Positions 5,013 through 42,600 of a stretch of 64,000 nt of DNA are shown here, piece by piece. This stretch comes from Scatophagus argus (lineage: Eukaryota; Chordata; Actinopteri; Scatophagidae). The DNA lies in contig NC_058506.1 of the NCBI RefSeq assembly GCF_020382885.2, positions 6,324,001 to 6,388,000 on the forward strand, written 5' to 3'. The position numbers were made by a program, and so were the translations under genes. Each line of letters begins with the position of its first letter. Position 1 is the first letter of the stretch. The notes beneath the pieces were generated by a model. The model did no database searches. It was not told the origin of the DNA and saw nothing but the letters and a program-made list of their open reading frames with translations.

Positions 5013-5100
5013 GGCGGAGGTCACAGGATTCCAGCTCACAGCAACGATTTGAGGATTAACAACACACCTGAAAAGAAAGACAGTGCTTATATTCACCATA
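5013..5100 (+). other. flrt1: flrt1 5'UTR portion of the coding exon
   Basis: A T-rich tract followed by AG at 5011-5012 makes a good 3' splice site, and the first ATG of the long reading frame follows at 5101. The frame stays open upstream to a GTG at 5083, but eukaryotic initiation makes 5101 (ATGG context) the likely start. FLRT genes typically have an intron in the 5'UTR and an uninterrupted coding exon, which fits. Confidence 0.7.
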
Positions 5101-7152
5101 ATGGCACCTGTAGGAGTGACTAAACTGCAGGCTCGGCTCTTTATGCTGTTTCTTTGCCTGACATTACATGTTGGCATGCTTCAGTTTGCTGCAGCCACGA
5201 TTCAAGGGTACATTGGGGACATGGACATGATATGCCCATCTGTATGCAGGTGTGATGAGGATTTTATCTATTGTAATGATCGTGGCTTGAGCTCCATCCC
5301 ATCACTGCCTCCTTCAGCATCTGTCCTCTATCTTCAGAACAACCACATAAACAATCCGGGATTGCCCACCTCGTTGGAGCACCATCTTGCTGTGCGTGTG
5401 GTCTACCTCTATGATAATGAACTGGATGAATTCCCCCTGCACCTGCCACCATCTGTCCGTGAACTGCATTTGCAGGACAACAACATACGCACTATTCCTC
5501 GTAGTGCGCTGGCTCGGATGCCCTTGCTAGAAAAACTCCACTTGGATGACAATTCTATTTCCACTGTCAGTATTGAGGACCAGGCCTTTGCTGACAATCC
5601 AAGGTTGCGCCTACTTTTCCTTTCACGCAATCACCTGTCTAGTATCCCTTCAGGATTGCCTGCCTCTCTGGAAGAACTCCGTTTGGATGACAACCGAATC
5701 TCCACTATCCCAACCCATGCCTTCCGAGGCCTCACTTCACTTAGATGTCTTGTCCTAGATGGGAACCTTTTGGCAAACCAGCGCATTGCCGATGACACAT
5801 TCTCCCGCCTTTCCAACTTGACTGAGTTGTCCCTAGTCCGTAACTCTCTCCAAACCCCACCTGTCAACCTGCCCAGTGCGCATCTGCAACGTCTGTCTTT
5901 ACAGGATAATGCCCTGACTCATATGCCACGTGGTTCCTTGGATGGCATGCGCAGGCTGCAGAGGCTGGACCTGTCAGGAAACAACCTGACCACTCTGCCG
6001 AGGGGACTGTTTAAAGACTTGGACAGCCTTGGTCAGTTGTTGGTGCGAGGTAATCCGTGGCACTGTGGATGCAATCTGCGCTGGCTGTATGACTGGCTGC
6101 ATGCCCGTGGTAACTCCATCACTGTGAGAGGTCTCACTTGCCATGGCCCCGACAGAGTGCGAGACATGGCTTTGATAGACCTCACCAGTGAAATGGAGGA
6201 ATGTGAGGTGGTGAGGACAGCAGGGACCAGAGACAAAACGATCGGAGGTGGGGTTGATAGCTCTACCACTCAAACTCCTCCGCAGGGCTCTCTCTTCACT
6301 CTCCGCTCAAAGCGGCCTGGTCTGGGGTTTCCTGACTCTGGTTTAGACTATACTCTTAGCAGCAGTGGTGTGGGTAAGAGCCTGGCCCTCAATGTGAAGC
6401 CCCTCTCTCACAACAGTGTCCGTGTTACCTGGAGCGTGGCCCAGCCCAGCTCCTCATTCAGGCTGAGCTGGCTCCGACTGGGTACTGGGAATGCTATGGG
6501 ATCAATCACGGAAACTCTTGTCCGGGGTGACCGTCGAGAGTACCTGCTTACCTCCCTGCAACCACACTCCAGCTACATCATCTGCATGGTGCCTCTCCCT
6601 GCAAGTTCAGAAAGCAAAGGGGCAGTTTCTGGAGATGCCGACTCTGATGAAGCTCTGGTGTGCGCTAAAGCTGAAACGTCAGACCTCAGCCCACTGGAGG
6701 AGGAGGAGGAGGAGGAGGAGGACTCACAGCAGATGACAGTGCTGCCCCTGGCGGGGATTATTGGTGGGGCTACCGCCATTGTATCCTTAGCTCTTATTTT
6801 TGGCATCTTCTGTTGGTATGGGCATAGGACTGGGCATTTGTGTCCCCGTGACCACTATACTCGCAGCAGTTCCCGAAAAAGCAAGACTTATGATGATTAC
6901 ATTGAGTCAGGCACCAAGAAGGACAATAGTATCTTGGAGATTCGTGGTCCGGGTTTCCAGATGACACCAATGGCGGCTTGCCAGCCAATGCAGCCTAAGC
7001 CCCTACGAGAAGATTACATCATTCATACCATATTCCCCTCTAATGGCACAGGCCTGTACAAGGGTGCCAACCATGTTTCTAATGCAGGACATGGCACTAA
7101 CCGTGGGTACAGAGAAGGAGGAATCCCAGATATAGACTACTGTTACACATGA
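5101..7152 (+). CDS. flrt1: FLRT1, fibronectin leucine-rich transmembrane protein 1
   Basis: This is a cell-surface adhesion receptor. Family members bind latrophilins and UNC5 receptors through the leucine-rich repeats and modulate FGF receptor signalling through the tail. It is a single coding exon of 683 aa, close to mammalian FLRT1. It begins with a signal peptide (about residues 1-33, hydrophobic [10 protein letters not shown]). A cysteine-capped LRR N-terminus follows (CPSVCRC, about 45-58), then about ten LRRs, an LRR C-terminal cap (NPWHCGCN, about 317-366) and a fibronectin III domain (about 427-526). A transmembrane helix ([20 protein letters not shown], about 549-572) leads to a conserved cytoplasmic tail ending DIDYCYT. 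Motifs such as [19 protein letters not shown] and [17 protein letters not shown] point to FLRT1 rather than FLRT2/3. Eight consecutive GAG codons (6697-6720) give an acidic juxtamembrane run before the helix. Teleosts may carry a/b duplicates; which copy this is cannot be told here. Confidence 0.96.
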
Positions 7153-24797: not shown

Positions 24798-26994
<2,197 letters not shown>

Positions 26995-30547: not shown

Positions 30548-33500
30548 ATGGACACAACAGCCTCATCAGAACGTAAGTACATGTGCTGGCTCTATGGTAG
30601 ATTAGAGACAAATATTCTTCTCTTAATTAACTCTAACTGAATTAATTCTCCCTCTCTGTTTCATATTGTTGCTTGTACCTTTACTAAGATGCATTTTGAC
30701 CAAAAAAGTTTGTATGGGACAAATATTTTACATTTTTACCTCGTGTAGGCCTGTATTCATTATGTTGCACAATTGTGTTTTATTAATACTTTAGTTCAGC
30801 TCACAATTAGAGCATGAATGAAAACAGTTACCATGGTTCTAATTTTGCAGATGTTTTCTAAATGTATCTATAAAAAAGCATGCTGAATTGTGTTATTATG
30901 TTTAAATATAGAAAATATTTTTCTAGAGAACAGTATTGTTTCTGAGGACGACTCTCAGCCGCGCCACCGTTTGTTGGAGAATCTTTGCAGTTCTTCATAT
31001 CCTGATCGGGACACTGAAGGCATCAAAAGTTGCGAGGCCGAAATGTGTGACCATCAAGAAAGAGACCACAAGTATGGAAAGACTGCTAACTCAAAATCTC
31101 AACAAATGAAGCACCATCGCCAAAATCAAAGCCATCACCGTCACCGTAACCAGCAAAACATACATCAGTCAGATGATAGTCAAGAGTAAGTTTGGACATA
31201 TCATATCCAAGTTTTGTGTATGAAATCTGTTCTTAGTTTTAAAAAAAGATATTTAATTTTTTTATATATATTTTGCTGTAGTAAGAGTTCATTTGTTATA
31301 CAATTTTAACTAACACATTCTCATTATCATAAGCTATCATCAGCCTTGTATAAAGATACTGTGCATTTTTAACATCCATGTTTTTTTTTTTTGAAAACAG
31401 CACCCATTCAACGACTGAGGACAGCGTTTTCAGTGATCATCACCCCGACCATCGATACGAGTTTGATCATGACAAGACTCGTCATTCCCACTCTCACCAT
31501 TACCATCGCAAGGAAAACCATCGTCATGTTTCTCTTTCAGAAACTCCCTTGAGTTCCTCAACTGGTTCCTCTTCATCCTCTTCTTCCTCGTCTTCATCAA
31601 CATCCTCTTGCTCCTCCTCTTCTTCCTCCTCTTCTTCCTTTTCTTCCTCGTCTTCCACGTCCTCCTCTAGCCTGTCCTCTGAGACTAGCAGTGAGTGTTT
31701 CGATAGCTATGCACTGAAGAAGCTCCAGCATTCACAGTCCTGTACTGACATTTCCAGGAAACACAAGTACTTTGAAGAGGGAGATGATACGGCCCCTTTG
31801 ATAGATAAAAGTGGTTATCCAAATAAACTCCCACCCAAACAGGAACAAGAGAAAGGAAAGCCCTCTCACAGTGGCTCTACTCAGGGCACCTTAAAGAACA
31901 CGCGGAGGATTACAAGAGGCTTGGGTAATGATGGAAGTTTCCGCAAAGCTAAATCACTTGAGGCTCTCACTGGACCCAATGAAAGAGAATGGCATGGAAA
32001 TGAAGAGGGAAATGAAAAAGAGAGGAGAAAAGGTGAGGCCATGAAGAATTTAATCAAGGAAAAACAGAAGTTCTCTGCCTTCCTTAATGAGATCACTCGG
32101 CAGGTACTCAGCCCGATGAGACTCACCACTCTTGGGGTCACTGATGCACAAAGACCCAGCAGTCCCGGGCAGGCTTCTGTTAGATCCAGTAAGGCCAACA
32201 GCAGCACCGAGAAACTCAGACAGCAGAGGAGTCGACCTACCAGTCCAGATTCTAATAGCTCTAGTAAATACTCCCATACCAGCAAACACTCCTGCAAGTA
32301 TTCCCATACCAGCAAGAGTGGAATTTCTCGCTCTAAATCTTTCCACCACCATCATGGTCACTGTTCTGCAGACCCTCACCATCACAAGCATCACAAGGCC
32401 AGAAATTGCACTGATGTTAGCTGTTTGAAAAGACGTCACTCATGGTCTCAAATTCCTCAACATCGCTCTCATTCACCTTCTTATAAGCACCATCACAATT
32501 CTGGCCATCATCATCACTATCACAGACACCACCACAGTCCTGCCTGTCATCCTGCAGACCACTGCAGCGCAACTCATCATCACCACGAAGACCACCACAG
32601 TTCAGGCCATCATCATCGCCATGGGGACCATCACAGTCCAGGCAATCACCATCAACATGGAGATGACCACAGTCCAGGCCATCATCCTCACCATGGAGAC
32701 CACCACACTCTAGGTCTTCATCATCATCACCATGAAGACCACCACAATCCAGGTCATCATCATCATAACCATGGAGATCACCACAGTCCAGGCCATCATC
32801 ATCACCACCAAAAAGACCACCACAGTCCAGGCCATCATCATCATCATAACCACGGAGACCACCACAGTCCAGGCCATCATCACCATGAAGAACACCACAG
32901 TACAGGCCATCATCCTCAACATGAAGACCAACACAGTACACACCATCGTCATCAACATGGAGACCACCACAGTACACACCATCGTCATCAACATGGAGAC
33001 CACCACAGTCCAGGCCATCATCATCACCATGAAGACCACCACACTCCAGGCCATCATCATCATCACCATGAAGACCAGCACAGTCCAGGCCATCATCATC
33101 ACCATGAAGACCACCACAGTACAGGTCATCATCAACATGAGGACCACCACAGTCCAGGCCATCATCATCACCATGAAGACCAGCACAGTCCAGGCCATCA
33201 TCATCACCATGGAGACCACCACAGTACAGGTCATCATCAACATGAGGACCACCACAGTCCAGGCCGTCATCATCACCATGAAGACCAGCACAGTCCAGGC
33301 CATCATCATCACCATGGAGACTGCCACAGTCCAGGCCATCACCATCAACATGATGACCACCACGGTCCAGGCCATCATCACCACCATGAAGACCACCACA
33401 GTCCAGGTCATCATCACCATGAGGACCATCACAGCCCAGGCCACCATCATCATCACCACCATGAAGACCACCACAGTCCAGGTCATCATCACCATGAGGA

Positions 33501-36500
33501 CCATCACAGCCCAGGCCACCATCATCATCACCATGAAGACCAGCACAGTCCAGGCCATCATCATCACCATGGAGACCACCACAGTCCAGGCCACCACCAT
33601 CAACATGACGACCACCACAGTCCAGGTCATCATCACCACCATGGAGACCACCACAGTCCAGGCCATCACCATCAACATGAAGACCACAACAGTTCAGGTC
33701 ATCATCATCAACATGGAAACCATCACAGTTCAGGCTATCATCATCAACATGGAAACCATCACAGTACAGGTCATCATCATCAACAGGAAGACCACCACAG
33801 TCCAGGCCATCACAAAGTACAACATTCTGAATCATATGTCAGCCAGCCCCTCCCCAAAAACAATGACGATGACCATGATGACCTTGATGACCACAACAGT
33901 AATTTAAGTCCAACTTCACGCAGGAAGCAGGAATCTGCTACTTCACCCAGGAATACTAGTAGCCCCTCTAGTCAGGAAGAGGAACAAACAAACTTCACTG
34001 GCTCATCATTACATAAAGTATGACATTTCTCTCAGGGTTTAGAGTATATTCATTTGTGAAATCCCTCCTTACAGTATGTCTATAAAGTAATTATTGCAAA
34101 GTCAATAGTTTCCTGTGTTATAACTGCTTAATTAACTGGTTATGTAATAATGTTCCACTCATTTTCTTACTTATTGATTTGGGCTTCAGACTGCATGTGA
34201 CTGTGTACTAGATTAATTATTACAGAACAATAGATTAGTTATATTGAACAAACTAATGGTAATCAAACTGACATTTCAAAATTGATATTCTTTGTTCTTT
34301 TTTAATTTTTTCCAATACAGGAAAAGACACATGAACTGGGAAGAATCATGTAAGGGCCATGGCATTCTTTCAGGCTTGTTAGCTGATAAAAGTCATAGTC
34401 TAATATTTTACATAGATAAATTGGTTGCTCACTCAAATTATTTTCAATGTCAATATCATAGAATATCAATATCACAGAAAACAATGGCCTGTTTTACAGC
34501 CAACATGTACAATTTTATCCTCTATAATTCTATCCTAATAGGATACTACAGGAGCAGAATGTAGGACTGCACCAAAGTTTGCTGAAGACAGCAGTGAGGA
34601 TGGAGTGTTTAGGAGAGGAGTTCATGAGCAGCCAAAAGCTTTTGGAAATGGAACTTCAGAGGACACGCATGGAGCTTAGCAACCTCTCAGAGAGGTTTAA
34701 GAGGTAAAGAAAGCACAGACAACACTTTGAGTCATCTTGAATGTAAGACATTAGAAAACTGATGTGTGGGTTTCATTGTCTTTGAGCATGCGTTTAGATT
34801 ACATTTGCTCTAAAGTACAACACTGGATTATGCTATGCTTTTGCCATGGATATGCTAAAAAAATTGCACTATACTGAAAGAAAAATCCTTTTTATGTTTT
34901 ATTAGGGGAATATCAATTTATGCTCTTCAGTAGACAGTTTAGGATCCCACATATTAAACTTAACCTGCAGAATCAGCTCACTCCTTATTCACTTAACCTG
35001 TCAAGCAAAGTCAGACTCATTCTTTTTTAATGTGTAGTTAGTCAGGATATCTAACAACAGTTGTGGATGCTTGCACTGAAAGTCTGTTACTATGTGTATT
35101 TTAATAGACTGGACTTCTTCTTACTAACTTCTCTTTTTGTGTATATGCCTTATTTTAGACTACACGACAATTGCTCCTCCACACAACAGACTAATAATCT
35201 TCTAGAGCAAAAGCTTCATTCAGTGGTGAGATTGGATGCATTTTTATGTTTCTTGTGCTTGAGCTTAATGATCAGAAATAAGACAATGGTTATTAAAAAC
35301 AAGGATACTTTTTCCACTGGATTATTAAAGTTGCCTGAGCAGTAAAAGTTACTGACGCCCTGGGGCAGGGATACCTCATCCCATTTACTGAAGGTTCGTC
35401 TGTAATAACCACCTCATGTTATTTTGTGTCAGGCCCAGAGAATGGAAGGAGAACGTGAGAGGCTGAACCTGCGTATTTCAGCACTGACAGAGAAGCTCGC
35501 TGAGGCAAAATTTGCCAACAGTGTGGAAACATTCAATGTGAGCTCTTTAACTTGTTATCAACTTCTAGGTGGAGGCAGTTGCTTCACAAACATATTCAGG
35601 GGCAAGGAATGAAAATATTCTGGGATTTCTGTTTACTACTATAAAAAAAGAAAGAAATATTGATAATCCTCTATGAGTATCTGTAATGCACATATAGCAT
35701 TAATATGATTTTTTTTTATTCACCTCTTCTTTATTCATAATTACTAAGCTAATGTGATTGTAATCTCTATCTATCTATCTGTAGGTAACATCAGTGCTAC
35801 ACAAAACTGATCTCCATTTTCAGTCAGATGATGGCATTAATCAGATAGTTCCCCCCATCGCCCCCCCTCCGGCTCAGTTTATGGACAGTCATAACTATGG
35901 AAAGGCCAAAGCCAGTGGGCGGGAGCAATGTCTAGGTTCAGTTCCAGAGGAAGAGGAATCTGACTGGTCTGAGATGGGAGAAGAGGCTCCACGTTTTATA
36001 CTGACAGGATCAAACAGATGTCAAGCATGGAGACTCCAAGAAGGAGACATTGACAAAGACAGTGAGTCAGGGGGTGAGGACATTGTCAGACCACACTCTC
36101 CGCGCCCACTGCAAATACCTCATCTCCAGTTCACCATCCACAGTGAGAATCTGTCTGAGGGCAGGACAGGTGAGGGCACTTACAGGATCACTACAACTCC
36201 GAGTCTTGGCTCTACTATCCTGATCCGGTCAGCTAGCCTGGAGGAAATCCCTCTTGGGCGCCATCACATACAGAAGGAGCTAAGAGGTACAGAGGCCATG
36301 ATGGACCTTCACCACCGAGGAGACGAAGCCATTGAAGATTTGGATAATGAGATCATTCATCACTGGAGAACAAATGACGACAGGGGTGTGGGTATTGGGA
36401 GCAGAATGTCAGAGACAGATAGCGGTCTGGCCAGCCTGCAATCAGCTGAGCGGATGCTCAACCAGTTCATATGTGAACCACTACCTGGGCAAGGGAAAGA

Positions 36501-36579
36501 TCAGGGCAGGGCTGAAGTACAGGGCTGGACAGGAGGGATCCCGGATGAGGTGCTGAAAGGGGAGCGAACACAGCTGTGA
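30548..36579 (+). CDS. histidine-rich, serine-rich coiled-coil protein, TJAP1/BEGAIN-like
   Basis: I do not recognise this gene as a named orthologue. The eight coding exons are 30548-30572, 30927-31185, 31401-34017, 34321-34349, 34542-34703, 35159-35225, 35433-35537 and 35785-36579. All phases agree, giving 1352 aa. Order along the protein: an acidic/basic N-terminus, a serine run (about 147-192), a basic segment with KEKQKFSAFLNEITRQVLSP, and a Ser/Lys/His segment. Then come 34 tandem His-rich units (about 491-899) and a coiled coil (about 970-1085) containing LLEMELQRTRMELSNLSERF and TNNLLEQKLHS. The acidic C-terminal region contains DSGLASLQSAERMLNQF. The coiled coil resembles the leucine-heptad region of TJAP1 and BEGAIN (LE.EL..., .QR.N..LE.KL). 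That is my recollection of the families, so the relationship is tentative. The exon 3 donor (AAA|GTATGA) is the weakest junction; unspliced, it would stop at 34023. A cytoplasmic, junction or scaffold role is inference only. Confidence 0.85.
31555..31690 (+). repeat. serine-coding low-complexity tract
   Basis: TCx-rich sequence (TCCTCTTCATCCTCTTCTTC type) encodes about 40 serines interrupted by Thr, Cys, Phe and Leu. Codons are mixed TCT/TCC/TCA/TCG/AGC rather than one expanded triplet. Confidence 0.9.
32587..33813 (+). repeat. 34-unit His-coding minisatellite (about 36-bp unit)
   Basis: A 1227-bp in-frame tandem array lies inside exon 3 of the His-rich gene. Unit consensus is E/G-D-H-H-S-P-G-H-H-H-H-H, encoded by about 36 bp. 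Units range from 33 to 42 bp through gain and loss of CAT/CAC codons. I counted 34 units, with length changes always in multiples of three. Variants include HSTHHRHQH (units 10-11), HHSTGHHQH (units 15 and 18) and DHHGPG (unit 22). The unit lacks stops in several frames, so long spurious frames run through it on both strands. Confidence 0.95.
35766..35780 (+). repeat. (TCTA)n tract serving as polypyrimidine tract
   Basis: A short TCTA microsatellite lies immediately before the GTAG acceptor of the last exon of the His-rich gene, in the place of the usual pyrimidine tract. Confidence 0.8.
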
Positions 36580-36816
36580 TAGAAACATGAGTGCAGTGTT
36601 TACTGTGTCTGAAATCATAATTTACTTTGATCTTAATCAATTTGAAAAGTGATGCTCTCTTTCAGCGGCTCAGCAGTTCAGCCATCCTAATTAACATGTG
36701 GTTTGAACAGAGCTGACCTTTGTAGTCAAACTGTAAGACGTGGTGGATTTACTTTGATAGCCCGTCTCATTTGAACATTTTTCAAAGCTGTGCTTCCTCA
36801 TTTGTTTCGCAATAAA
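36580..36816 (+). other. probable 3'UTR of His-rich gene with AATAAA
   Basis: Non-coding sequence after the TGA ends at an AATAAA at 36811-36816. A second AATAAA lies at about 37401, so alternative longer ends are possible. Confidence 0.55.
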
Positions 36817-39604: not shown

Positions 39605-42600
39605 ATGGTGGTGATGAAGATGAAGTTCCCCTTTCAAAAAAGGGTGAAGCTAGCCCAGGGACTGTGGCTCCTCTCCTGGTGTGCCACAGTGGCTGGAGCT
39701 ATGACCTTCAGCCTGGGGTGCATCCTGAAGGTAGAGCTCCGCAGGAGGGCAGAGGTACTTTTCAGTTTTTACATGCTCACACTTTGAAGCTTCAAAATTC
39801 CAAAGCTTTTTTGTTTCTGACCTTTTCTTTCCACATAAGCATACCAACTAACAGTGAAATTACAGACTTGCTTTATTGCAAAACTGAATGATATGTAATG
39901 ATGTTTCTTAGATCGTCCTAGAAAGTATGATGAGTTGACTTTGGTCTGCTTGTACTTGTATGCACACACATGCAAACACACACACGGGAAATGCCTACAT
40001 TGAGGGTCATCAAATTTGTAAGTTGTCAGGTTTACACTTGACTATATACTGATGTGCTGATAATGTACAAGTACACCTGACAGGTGCCACCTGGAATGTC
40101 TCTCTTTTGGGAAAAATGTGAACATAGGACAAAGTGTTTTGAAAGGATAAATCAAAACTAATCATGTCAAACAAAAGACCTTAACTGGAGACCAACAAGC
40201 AGTTGATACATCTATGACCCACTTTGGAATCTGACTCATCATTTCATAAACTGGGCTCTGACAGTTTTAATCAGCCTAATCCATTCTTCTGAAGGTGATC
40301 GTCACACCTTTGCATTATTAATAAGCACTACATCATTTTGCAACTTATTTTTAAAGCATTTTACTCTCATAGATAAATAGATTTCATAATTTCACTATTT
40401 GCAGCACCAAAAACTTCATCAAAAAACCCACCAAAATATTTCTTTTCAATTATACAAATATTATGACAAAAAGAGGCCCAGTTGACCTGTTTTAGTTGGA
40501 TGGCTGTAAAAACCTAAATTTACCAAAATCTAAGAGGTTTACAAAATGTTGGTATGTCACTATCATGTCACTATGTATATTGCATTTTATTTTAACTCAC
40601 TGAAGGAAAATCAATAAAATCAGTGTAAGAAATCTATTAAAGTCCAATAGATTTTGTGCAGTTTTTTAGGTGTGCAAATGGGAGTTTTCCCACAAGTGCT
40701 TGTTTATGCAGGCTTATGCAACTAGCCCAAAGATCCTCTACATAAACCAGTGGAATATGTTTTTCAAAGATACAATACAAAGACACATATACTCTATAAC
40801 CTCACTGGACAATTTTACAGGGGTATAATAACAATAATTTACAAGAAGAAAAAGAAGAAAAGCAAAAATATAAGTTATCTGTGCATCATGAGCTTTGTGT
40901 TTGGTGACTTTTTTGTACCAACACAGTATGCAGTTTTTTTTTAATAAGAAAAGGAAAGAATGTATCCCGTTATGTGCGCCCAGCAATCCCAGAGAAAGAG
41001 GTTTTCTTTTATACTGGTACTGTATCGTTTAAAAAAGTTTAAATTCAGGCATGATGACATCCTTACAAAGTACATTCTGAAACATGTTTGCCTTGTTTAC
41101 CTACATGAAATGGATAGAATTTATATGAATTGCATTATTATGTGATTACAGGTAATGGATAACTCAGACATACATATTGTGCCCAACACCCTCATGATTG
41201 TTGGTCTGGCCTCTTTGGGTATCAACTACTTTGCTTCAAAGATCTGTCAGGATGCCCTGGATGCCGGGCGATTTCCTCGCTGGAAGAACTTCTTGAAGCC
41301 CTACTTTGCTGTCTCTTGTTTCTTTACTGTCCTCATGCTGCTAGCTGTCATCATGAGCTATGCAATGAAGGGCAGTCTGGAGTCTTCTCTGAAGGTTGGC
41401 CTGAGGAATGGCATCCGTTTCTACAAGGACACAGACACCCCAGGTCGCTGCTTCCAGAAACAGAACATTGATCGCCTGCAGATGGAGTTTCAGTGCTGTG
41501 GTAACAATGACCATAGGGACTGGTTTGAGGTGCAGTGGATCAGCAACCGCTACCTTGATTTCAGCTCTAAGGAAGTGAAAGAGTGAGTCTGATTACACTA
41601 CAGATGAAGAGCCATGAAGTAATATGTCAGCAGTGGTGCAATGTAATTAGTACTGCACTGTACTTTTCTTGACTATTTCCATTTTATACAATATTATACT
41701 TTCCTCCACCACATTTGCCTCAGTTTCGGGTACTAGTACACAAAGCTGAAAACAAGGCTGTTTTTCTGAGCATGTGGTTCTCAAACTACAAACATACGAT
41801 TATCTAATATAATATGATGATTGCTGTAGATTAAACTACCAACAGTATGTATGGTAGTTAAAATAAGCTCATCATACACATCACAGCAGTGATATTGATC
41901 TTAGTATGGTATTAAAACTAAAGGCAAAAGACCTAAATATCTCTTCTAATACTGTATGTTGGTAATCTGACACATACTTAACTTGTTTCCTCAGCCGCAT
42001 CAAGAGCAACGTGGATGGCCGTTACTTGGTAGATGGGGTCCCATTCAGTTGCTGCAACCCCAGCTCTCCACGGCCATGCATCCAGTATCAACTCACCAAC
42101 AACTCGGCTCACTATAACTATGAATACCAAACCGAGGAGCTCAACATCTACCTCCGAGGCTGCAGAGAGGCCCTGGTAAACTACTACATGGGCCTGATGA
42201 ACACCATTGGGGCTGGAGTTCTGTCAGTCTTCCTCTTACAGGTATATTATACATGAAGAATTACAGTGATTTCATGCAGCTGGTGGTGCTTTAATTTGGA
42301 GGATGGCCAGGGTATGATATTGCCTTTATAGGGATTGGTATGGATACTGAGGTCATACTAAGTTTATCATTGGGTTATGGCCTTACAAGCACATGAAACA
42401 TTCTTTTCTATGGGTCTGATGGCCACAGTTTTTACAATGTCCATAGAGTCTGTGTAGATATTTGTTGATGTTCTCTAACAGAACCTACTCTACATCTAAG
42501 TCGTTCCCCCATTTTCCACCTCCTCCTCCTCCCCAGGGCTCTGTGCTGGTGAGCCTGCGGTTCCTGCAGACCTCCATGGAGGCAGTGGCAGGGAAGGAGA

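What the first reader, a model, noticed from the sequence alone, without database searches (positions are those of the whole stretch)
32587..33813. Giant in-frame histidine minisatellite: 34 units of a ~12-residue His repeat in one exon
Exon 3 of the unnamed gene encodes 34 tandem copies of E/G-D-H-H-S-P-G-H-H-H-H-H, about 409 residues that are more than half histidine. Every length change I could follow is a multiple of three, and the unit keeps an acidic residue plus Ser-Pro-Gly between His clusters. That argues for selection on the protein. Known His-rich repeats bind zinc or other metals, act as pH sensors or drive phase separation; which of these applies is inference. I know of no named vertebrate scaffold with this array.
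Basis: partly seen in the sequence, partly recalled or inferred. Interest (0 to 1): 0.78.

Follow-up and report, generated by a model that had tools for sequence, protein, structure and literature searches.

The report
Histidine repeat in TJAP1-family fish scaffold
A fish gene related to the cell scaffold proteins TJAP1 and BEGAIN carries 34 tandem copies of a 12-residue, half-histidine unit; the gene looks real and its histidine-rich front part looks old, but the long array itself looks like a loosely constrained expansion.

Summary
In detail: 34 units, 409 residues, 208 histidines (50.9%), no stop, in one exon. An eight-exon model gives 1,352 residues. The gene is not an orphan: its coil matches this genome's TJAP1 (36% over 102 aa), two coil exons equal those of TJAP1 and BEGAIN in length and phase, and a block FSxFLDExT recurs at all four family loci. 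The closest relative, on contig C12, aligns with histidine clusters and a serine run but has no array. So a histidine-rich N-terminus probably predates this pair, and the array is a local expansion, found nowhere else in the genome by protein search. The case for selection on the array is not supported: 13 of 48 reconstructed changes are synonymous, near neutral expectation, and triplet length changes follow from slippage. Most likely work, inferred: a multivalent, proton- and metal-responsive tail on a dimeric scaffold. A passenger expansion is almost as likely. No transcript or other species could be examined.

The parts
30548..30572 (+). coding exon 1 (start codon; TGA in frame just upstream; an acceptor-like tract before 30513 suggests a 5' UTR exon further up)
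   Evidence: splice donor GTAAGT
30927..31185 (+). exon 2, ends in a histidine cluster
   Evidence: aligned with the C12 paralog's exon 2
31401..34017 (+). exon 3: histidine cluster, serine run, FSAFLNEIT block, array, acidic tail
31555..31690 (+). serine run (approximate ends); the C12 paralog has one that aligns with it
31936..32142 (+). conserved block RKAKSLEAL...KFSAFLNEITRQVLSPMRLTTLGV; its FSxFLDExT part recurs at all four family loci of the genome
32467..32586 (+). degenerate upstream copies of the same 36-base repeat
32587..33813 (+). array of 34 units, 409 aa, 208 His
34321..34349 (+). exon 4 (29 nt)
34542..34703 (+). exon 5, coiled coil; 162 nt, same length and phase as in TJAP1 and BEGAIN of the same genome
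   Evidence: lengths of the relatives counted from printed splice contexts
35159..35225 (+). exon 6, coiled coil; 67 nt, same length and phase as in TJAP1 and BEGAIN
35433..35537 (+). exon 7, coiled coil; 105 nt against 108 nt in TJAP1 and in the C12 paralog (not found for BEGAIN)
35785..36579 (+). exon 8, acidic C-terminal region ending T-Q-L (fits a class I PDZ ligand); no other match in the genome

Best explanation
The gene is a member of the TJAP1/BEGAIN family: a long, probably disordered N-terminal exon with a conserved FSxFLDExT block, a central coiled coil that probably dimerises, and a C-terminal tail that ends in a PDZ-ligand-like T-Q-L (shown: sequence likeness, exon lengths and phases; inferred: disorder, dimer, PDZ binding). 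In the branch formed by this gene and the C12 copy, both N-termini are rich in histidine (shown), most simply by descent (inferred). In this copy one histidine-rich stretch was then multiplied by unequal exchange and slippage into 34 units (inferred). The most likely work is that of a multivalent tail: histidine clusters of 2 to 7, spaced by Asp-His-His-Ser-Pro-Gly linkers, bind zinc or copper weakly and take up protons near neutral pH, so that the net charge of the array swings from negative to positive, and avidity from the dimer turns that into clustering or release of the scaffold (inferred). Unit number would then set strength rather than kind.
For: Family: coil 37 of 102 identical to this genome's own TJAP1, 0 of 2000 class-preserving shuffles reach the score (183 against a maximum of 123); exons of 162 and 67 nt with equal phases in window gene, TJAP1 and BEGAIN; block found at C12, C14, C10 and C19, 4 of 4 scored candidates. 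Closest relative C12: 25 of 43 in the first coil exon, 32 of 61 in the block. Histidine: 58 of 483 pre-array residues (12.0%), 50 of 574 in C12 (8.7%), 20 of 380 in TJAP1 (5.3%), 9 of 346 in the BEGAIN frame. Charge: array calculated -24.8 at pH 7.4, +2.0 at 7.0, +56.1 at 6.5 with His pKa 6.5; with pKa 6.0 the crossing is near pH 6.5. Precedents: horse HRG binds nickel less when 45 or 90 bp of its histidine-rich region is deleted (PMC9822902, abstract); yeast Snf1's 13-His tract works as a progressive pH sensor (PMC10376661, passages); TJAP1 is described as N-terminal unstructured region, central coil predicted to form a homodimer, unstructured C-terminus (PMC10820826, passages).
Against: No transcript, protein or binding data. 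Within the array, replacement changes are nearly as frequent as neutral drift predicts. tblastn of the window protein against the C12 locus reported only the block and the coil, not the histidine clusters or serine run; these pair in a MAFFT alignment, and two low-complexity stretches can arise twice. Neighbouring units are hardly more alike than units in general (mean edit distance 6.5 against 6.7), so the order of copying cannot be read. C12 and TJAP1 do without an array. No other species could be compared, so age and conservation of the array are unknown.
Confidence: 0.42

Rival explanations
1. Tolerated passenger: a coding minisatellite that grew in a disordered, already histidine-rich segment and is kept in frame only because frame breaks would destroy the coil downstream. 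It has no function of its own.
For: 13 of 48 reconstructed changes synonymous, near the neutral share at the observed transition bias; absence of stops says little (1.6% of mutations, about 0.8 in 48); units 14, 17, 20 and 27 identical, a sign of recent copying; array not seen in the C12 and TJAP1 exons and unique in the genome by protein search. Gain of low-complexity regions in vertebrate proteins is often by repeat expansion (PMC3523016, abstract).
Against: Histidine richness before the array, aligned with that of C12, suggests composition matters in this branch; 409 half-histidine residues is a costly load for a pure passenger (inference). Column 4 of the unit (His) has only 1 of the 48 changes (heterogeneity not formally tested).
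Confidence: 0.4
2. Localisation signal: the His clusters send the scaffold to a nuclear body or condensate, as His runs of five or more do for nuclear speckles in human proteins.
For: 14 runs of five to seven His in the array; 15 of 22 nuclear human His-tract proteins were at speckles, deletion abolishes it, and paralogs without repeats fail to localise (PMC2644819, abstract and passages).
Against: Relatives work outside the nucleus: TJAP1 at the cis-Golgi in the cells studied (PMC13305319, passages); BEGAIN is listed as a ligand of the DLG guanylate-kinase domain (PMC6989407, one passage). No nuclear signal was tested.
Confidence: 0.13
3. Not translated: the array is spliced out as an internal intron of exon 3, or the gene is a pseudogene.
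For: No RNA data in hand; array length is a multiple of three, so removal would keep the frame.
Against: All 8 exons of the model open with AG/GT borders; coil and block conserved against relatives; 355 pre-array codons open, 0 of 2000 shuffles.
Confidence: 0.05

Closest known systems
TJAP1 (PILT), this genome's copy at C10
   Same: lengths and phases of two coil exons, coil sequence, FSxFLDExT block in a long 5' frame
   Different: no array, 5.3% His in that stretch, a Pilt domain (PF15453) over its C-terminal exons that the window protein lacks
BEGAIN, this genome's copy at C19 (named from recall of the human sequence)
   Same: coil exons of 162 and 67 nt, block FSQFLDEVT in an upstream frame
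   Different: no array seen in that frame, His not enriched (9 of 346)
unnamed C12 paralog (C12:10430500-10450300, minus)
   Same: closest sequence; His clusters in exons 2 and 3, serine run, block, coil; by eye a C-terminal SAQRILDEF against SAERMLNQF here
   Different: no tandem array; first coil exon 33 nt shorter; C-terminal likeness not borne out by search
Histidine-rich glycoprotein (HRG)
   Same: His-rich region whose length varies and affects metal binding (PMC9822902, abstract)
   Different: plasma protein with other domains (recalled); no direct sequence comparison made
Polyhistidine tracts (Snf1, YY1, DYRK1A and others; PMC10376661, PMC2644819, passages)
   Same: clusters of His
   Different: single short tracts, not 34 spaced units

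Membership tests
TJAP1/BEGAIN family | coil sequence similar to TJAP1 and BEGAIN beyond generic coiled coils | tested here: met
   37 of 102 to own-genome TJAP1, 0 of 2000 class-preserving shuffles; no PDB chain at E up to 1; recalled human sequences agree. In the whole-genome search the single-exon hits are weak: C10 E 0.004, C12 0.007, C19 0.47
TJAP1/BEGAIN family | coil exons of 162 and 67 nt in the same phases | tested here: met
   relatives' lengths counted by hand; C12 copy 129 nt for the first, second not found
TJAP1/BEGAIN family | FSxFLDExT block in a long upstream frame (defined here, not a published criterion) | tested here: met
   C12, C14, C10, C19; C10 and C19 at E 0.03-0.04 only; the window block alone finds C10 (E 1e-8) but not C19
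TJAP1 proper | Pilt domain PF15453 in the C-terminal part | tested here: not met
   no PF15453 hit at E up to 1, while the genome's TJAP1 scores 299 and 206 bits
TJAP1 proper | N-terminal KPYRKAPP Mint-binding motif | tested here: not met
   by eye absent from the model protein; present in the C10 gene
BEGAIN-type MAGUK ligand | binds a guanylate-kinase domain | not testable with these tools
   needs a binding assay
Metal-binding His-rich proteins | binds zinc, copper or nickel | not testable with these tools
   composition only
Histidine-rich glycoprotein | cystatin-type domains (recalled) | tested here: not met
   no cystatin among the Pfam hits of the three segments scanned; no hit of any kind over its cut-off

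The most novel reading that the evidence does not exclude
A separate branch of the TJAP1/BEGAIN scaffolds, marked by an ancient histidine-rich N-terminus, in which a coding minisatellite acts as a dial: unit number sets the pH or zinc threshold at which the dimeric scaffold clusters, and it differs between individuals or species.
Probability: 0.15. Interest if true: 0.72.

Novelty: new variant of a known kind. Interest (0 to 1): 0.42.

Why it matters
It gives an unnamed gene a family, with evidence from exon structure within one genome, and shows that TJAP1, BEGAIN and two further loci share an N-terminal block that no Pfam model matched in the three loci scanned (window, C10, C12). If the His-rich tail works as inferred, repeat number in a coding minisatellite would be a natural variable for testing how histidine multivalency tunes scaffold assembly. 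If it is a passenger, it is a clear example of how large a low-complexity insert a scaffold tolerates.

Tried and rejected
Rejected: selection on the array from triplet indels (slippage explains them). Rejected: another array of this kind in the genome; of 16 scored candidates 3 passed, the array itself and two C3 hits (31% and 28%) over an unrelated tandem repeat. Rejected: a generic coiled coil; the best Pfam hit is 16.7 bits under a cut-off of 28.2, no PDB hit at E up to 1. A phosphorylation-code reading (22 Ser/Thr-Pro sites) is weakened because the Pro column has 6 replacement changes, second only to column 1. An exon-8 search of viral contigs found no relative (2 pattern matches, none confirmed). 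Exon 8 has no second match in the own genome (1 of 2 scored candidates, itself). Literature: 10 searches; no listed title or abstract start names this gene or array; others (histidine-rich repeats + teleost; BEGAIN + guanylate kinase-associated + teleost) returned none, (minisatellite + histidine-rich + fish + coding) two unrelated ones; one search listed 20 of 102 and 12 of 13. The library holds open-licence papers only. Not reached: FLRT synteny of the paralogs (10 unanswered tries) and the wider C12 surroundings.

Weak points of the tests: the synonymous/replacement counts rest on 10 codon columns of 34 units and a FastTree/Fitch reconstruction; the middle His codons were left out, and exchange between units breaks the tree assumption. 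The class-preserving shuffle keeps residue class by position, not exact heptads. Exon ends in C10, C12 and C19 were read by eye from splice consensus; the C19 first coil donor is GTACAA, a poor one. The C12 middle coil exon and the C19 third coil exon were not found.
Full report
Observation. Tandem Repeats Finder reports 32574-33812 with period 36, 34.1 copies and 81% matches. In the exon-3 frame 32587-33813 reads 409 residues with 208 His, 46 Gly, 34 Asp, 33 Ser, 26 Pro, 19 Glu and 19 Gln. Complete units are 11 to 14 codons long after two boundary codons are moved. Degenerate copies lie upstream from about 32467. Units 14, 17, 20 and 27 are identical at the DNA level, as are 23 and 25; yet neighbours are on average hardly more alike than any two units (6.5 against 6.7 edits).

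Gene model. Eight exons, 30548-30572, 30927-31185, 31401-34017, 34321-34349, 34542-34703, 35159-35225, 35433-35537 and 35785-36579, with AG/GT borders at all seven introns, give one open frame of 1,352 residues. The start codon has an in-frame stop just upstream. AATAAA stands at 36811 and 37402. The 355 codons from 31402 to 32466 are open, while the other two forward frames have 9 and 34 stops and 0 of 2000 shuffles are open. The gene is therefore very likely real; no RNA was available.

Family. Pfam has nothing above its cut-off in the three segments scanned and nothing in the pre-array stretch. I first noticed a likeness to human BEGAIN and TJAP1 as recalled (BLASTP 32% over 130 and 37% over 115 aa). 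The window's own genome (570.7 Mb, 48 contigs; window at C14:6324001-6388000) allowed a test without memory. The Pilt model finds TJAP1 on C10. That gene's upstream frame holds MTSAAPARKPYRKAPPQHRETR, which fits the human TJAP1 peptide KPYRKAPPEHRELR printed in PMC10820826 (passages). A coil search gives 6 matches of 10 scored candidates: three are the window gene's own exons, the others C10 (E 0.004), C12 (0.007) and C19 (0.47). On their own the last three are weak; joined coil exons of C10 and window gene are 37 of 102 identical, and none of 2000 class-preserving shuffles comes near the score. The first two coil exons are 162 and 67 nt in the window gene, TJAP1 and BEGAIN, in the same phases; the third is 105 nt here and 108 nt in TJAP1 and C12 (lengths for C10, C12 and C19 counted from the printed splice contexts). 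The C12 first coil exon is 129 nt, 11 codons shorter. The C19 gene is called BEGAIN from recall of the human sequence.

A second shared part. The stretch KFSAFLNEITRQVLSPMRLTTLGV of exon 3 has counterparts in the long upstream frames of the other three: C12, C14, C10 and C19, 4 of 4 scored candidates (C10 and C19 with E 0.03-0.04, so they lean on the coil of the same gene region). My tblastn with the window block found it in C10 (E 1e-8) and C12 but not in C19. Identities in the first coil exon are 25 of 43 (window-C12) and 28 of 54 (TJAP1-BEGAIN), against 21 of 54, 19 of 54, 17 of 43 and 16 of 43 across. So the window gene and C12 look like one branch, TJAP1 and BEGAIN like the other; no tree with support values was built. 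Exon 8 found only itself; a short C-terminal likeness to C12 is by eye.

Where the histidines come from. The C12 copy has no array, yet its exon 2 ends, and its exon 3 begins, in histidine clusters, followed by a serine run, as in the window gene; the alignment pairs them. Local tblastn at E 1e-3 reported only block and coil, so this pairing rests on order and composition. His is 58 of 483 pre-array residues here, 50 of 574 in C12, 20 of 380 in TJAP1 and 9 of 346 in the BEGAIN frame (which may include non-exon ends). A histidine-rich N-terminus is most simply older than the split of the pair, and the array a later expansion downstream of the block. By protein search the array occurs nowhere else in this genome: 3 of 16 scored candidates passed, the array itself and two composition-driven hits on C3.

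Is the array under selection? On a tree of the 34 units I reconstructed 48 changes in 10 codon columns: 13 synonymous, 35 replacement; 20 at third positions, 14 and 14 at first and second. The neutral share of synonymous changes is 0.162, 0.207, 0.233 and 0.251 for transition bias 1 to 4; one-sided P is 0.04, 0.18, 0.32 and 0.43. With 31 transitions to 17 transversions the higher biases apply. Among distinct single-base alternatives 8 of 31 are synonymous, 4.4 to 7.4 expected. This does not show constraint, nor does it exclude weak constraint on composition. Triplet steps in CAY runs are what slippage gives.

How it may work. Calculated net charge of the array goes from -24.8 at pH 7.4 through +2.0 at 7.0 to +56.1 at 6.5 for a His pKa of 6.5; with pKa 6.0 the crossing is near pH 6.5. 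The array holds 61 His runs of two or more, 14 of them of five to seven. Deleting part of the His-rich region lowers nickel affinity in horse HRG (PMC9822902, abstract only), and a His tract senses pH progressively in Snf1 (PMC10376661, passages). Put on a coil that likeness to TJAP1 predicts to dimerise (PMC10820826, passages), such a tail would act by avidity. That chain is inference beyond the charge calculation and the homology. A passenger expansion is nearly as likely; a speckle-type localisation role (PMC2644819, abstract and passages) is less so, since TJAP1 sits at the cis-Golgi (PMC13305319, passages).

Surroundings. The window also holds an LRR/fn3 gene like FLRT (Pfam LRR_8 8.5e-38; fn3 0.0003, under its cut-off) and a tetraspanin like ROM1/peripherin (1.8e-14). 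The names FLRT, ROM1, ZFPL1 (24.8-27.0 kb; a recalled motif found at 24879), FRMD8 (46-52 kb) and VPS51 (56-59 kb) come from recall; three stretches of the last two sent to Pfam gave no family.

Verdict. Observation confirmed; gene placed in a family; selection on the array not shown; function open between a multivalent His tail and a passenger. New variant of a known kind.

Noticed in passing
32417-33838 (-) and 32714-33907 (+): The array leaves a 473-aa antisense frame and a 397-aa second forward frame without stops, a by-product of the 36-base unit.
   Followed up: partly
36562-36579: The protein ends E-R-T-Q-L, which fits a class I PDZ ligand.
   Followed up: no
L018/L019 (C3:23630499-23631470): Another coding-like tandem array (PESSRSQPR, or DQRAPGHSQ in another frame), unrelated to this one, in an open frame of 568 aa.
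   Followed up: partly
L014 (C10:230050-228827, minus): Fish TJAP1 has a 408-aa open 5' frame that holds both the Mint-binding N-terminus and the FSxFLDExT block; human TJAP1 as recalled lacks the block.
   Followed up: partly
L010+L012 (C12:10430500-10450300, minus): Unnamed paralog with histidine clusters and serine run, first coil exon 11 codons shorter; its middle coil exon was not found.
   Followed up: partly
5056-7152, 24.8-27.0 kb, 41146-42256, 46-52 kb, 56-59 kb: Neighbours look like FLRT, ZFPL1, ROM1/peripherin, FRMD8 and VPS51, genes of human 11q12-13 (recalled); ZFPL1 and VPS51 are adjacent in human as recalled, so this gene may be lost there.
   Followed up: partly
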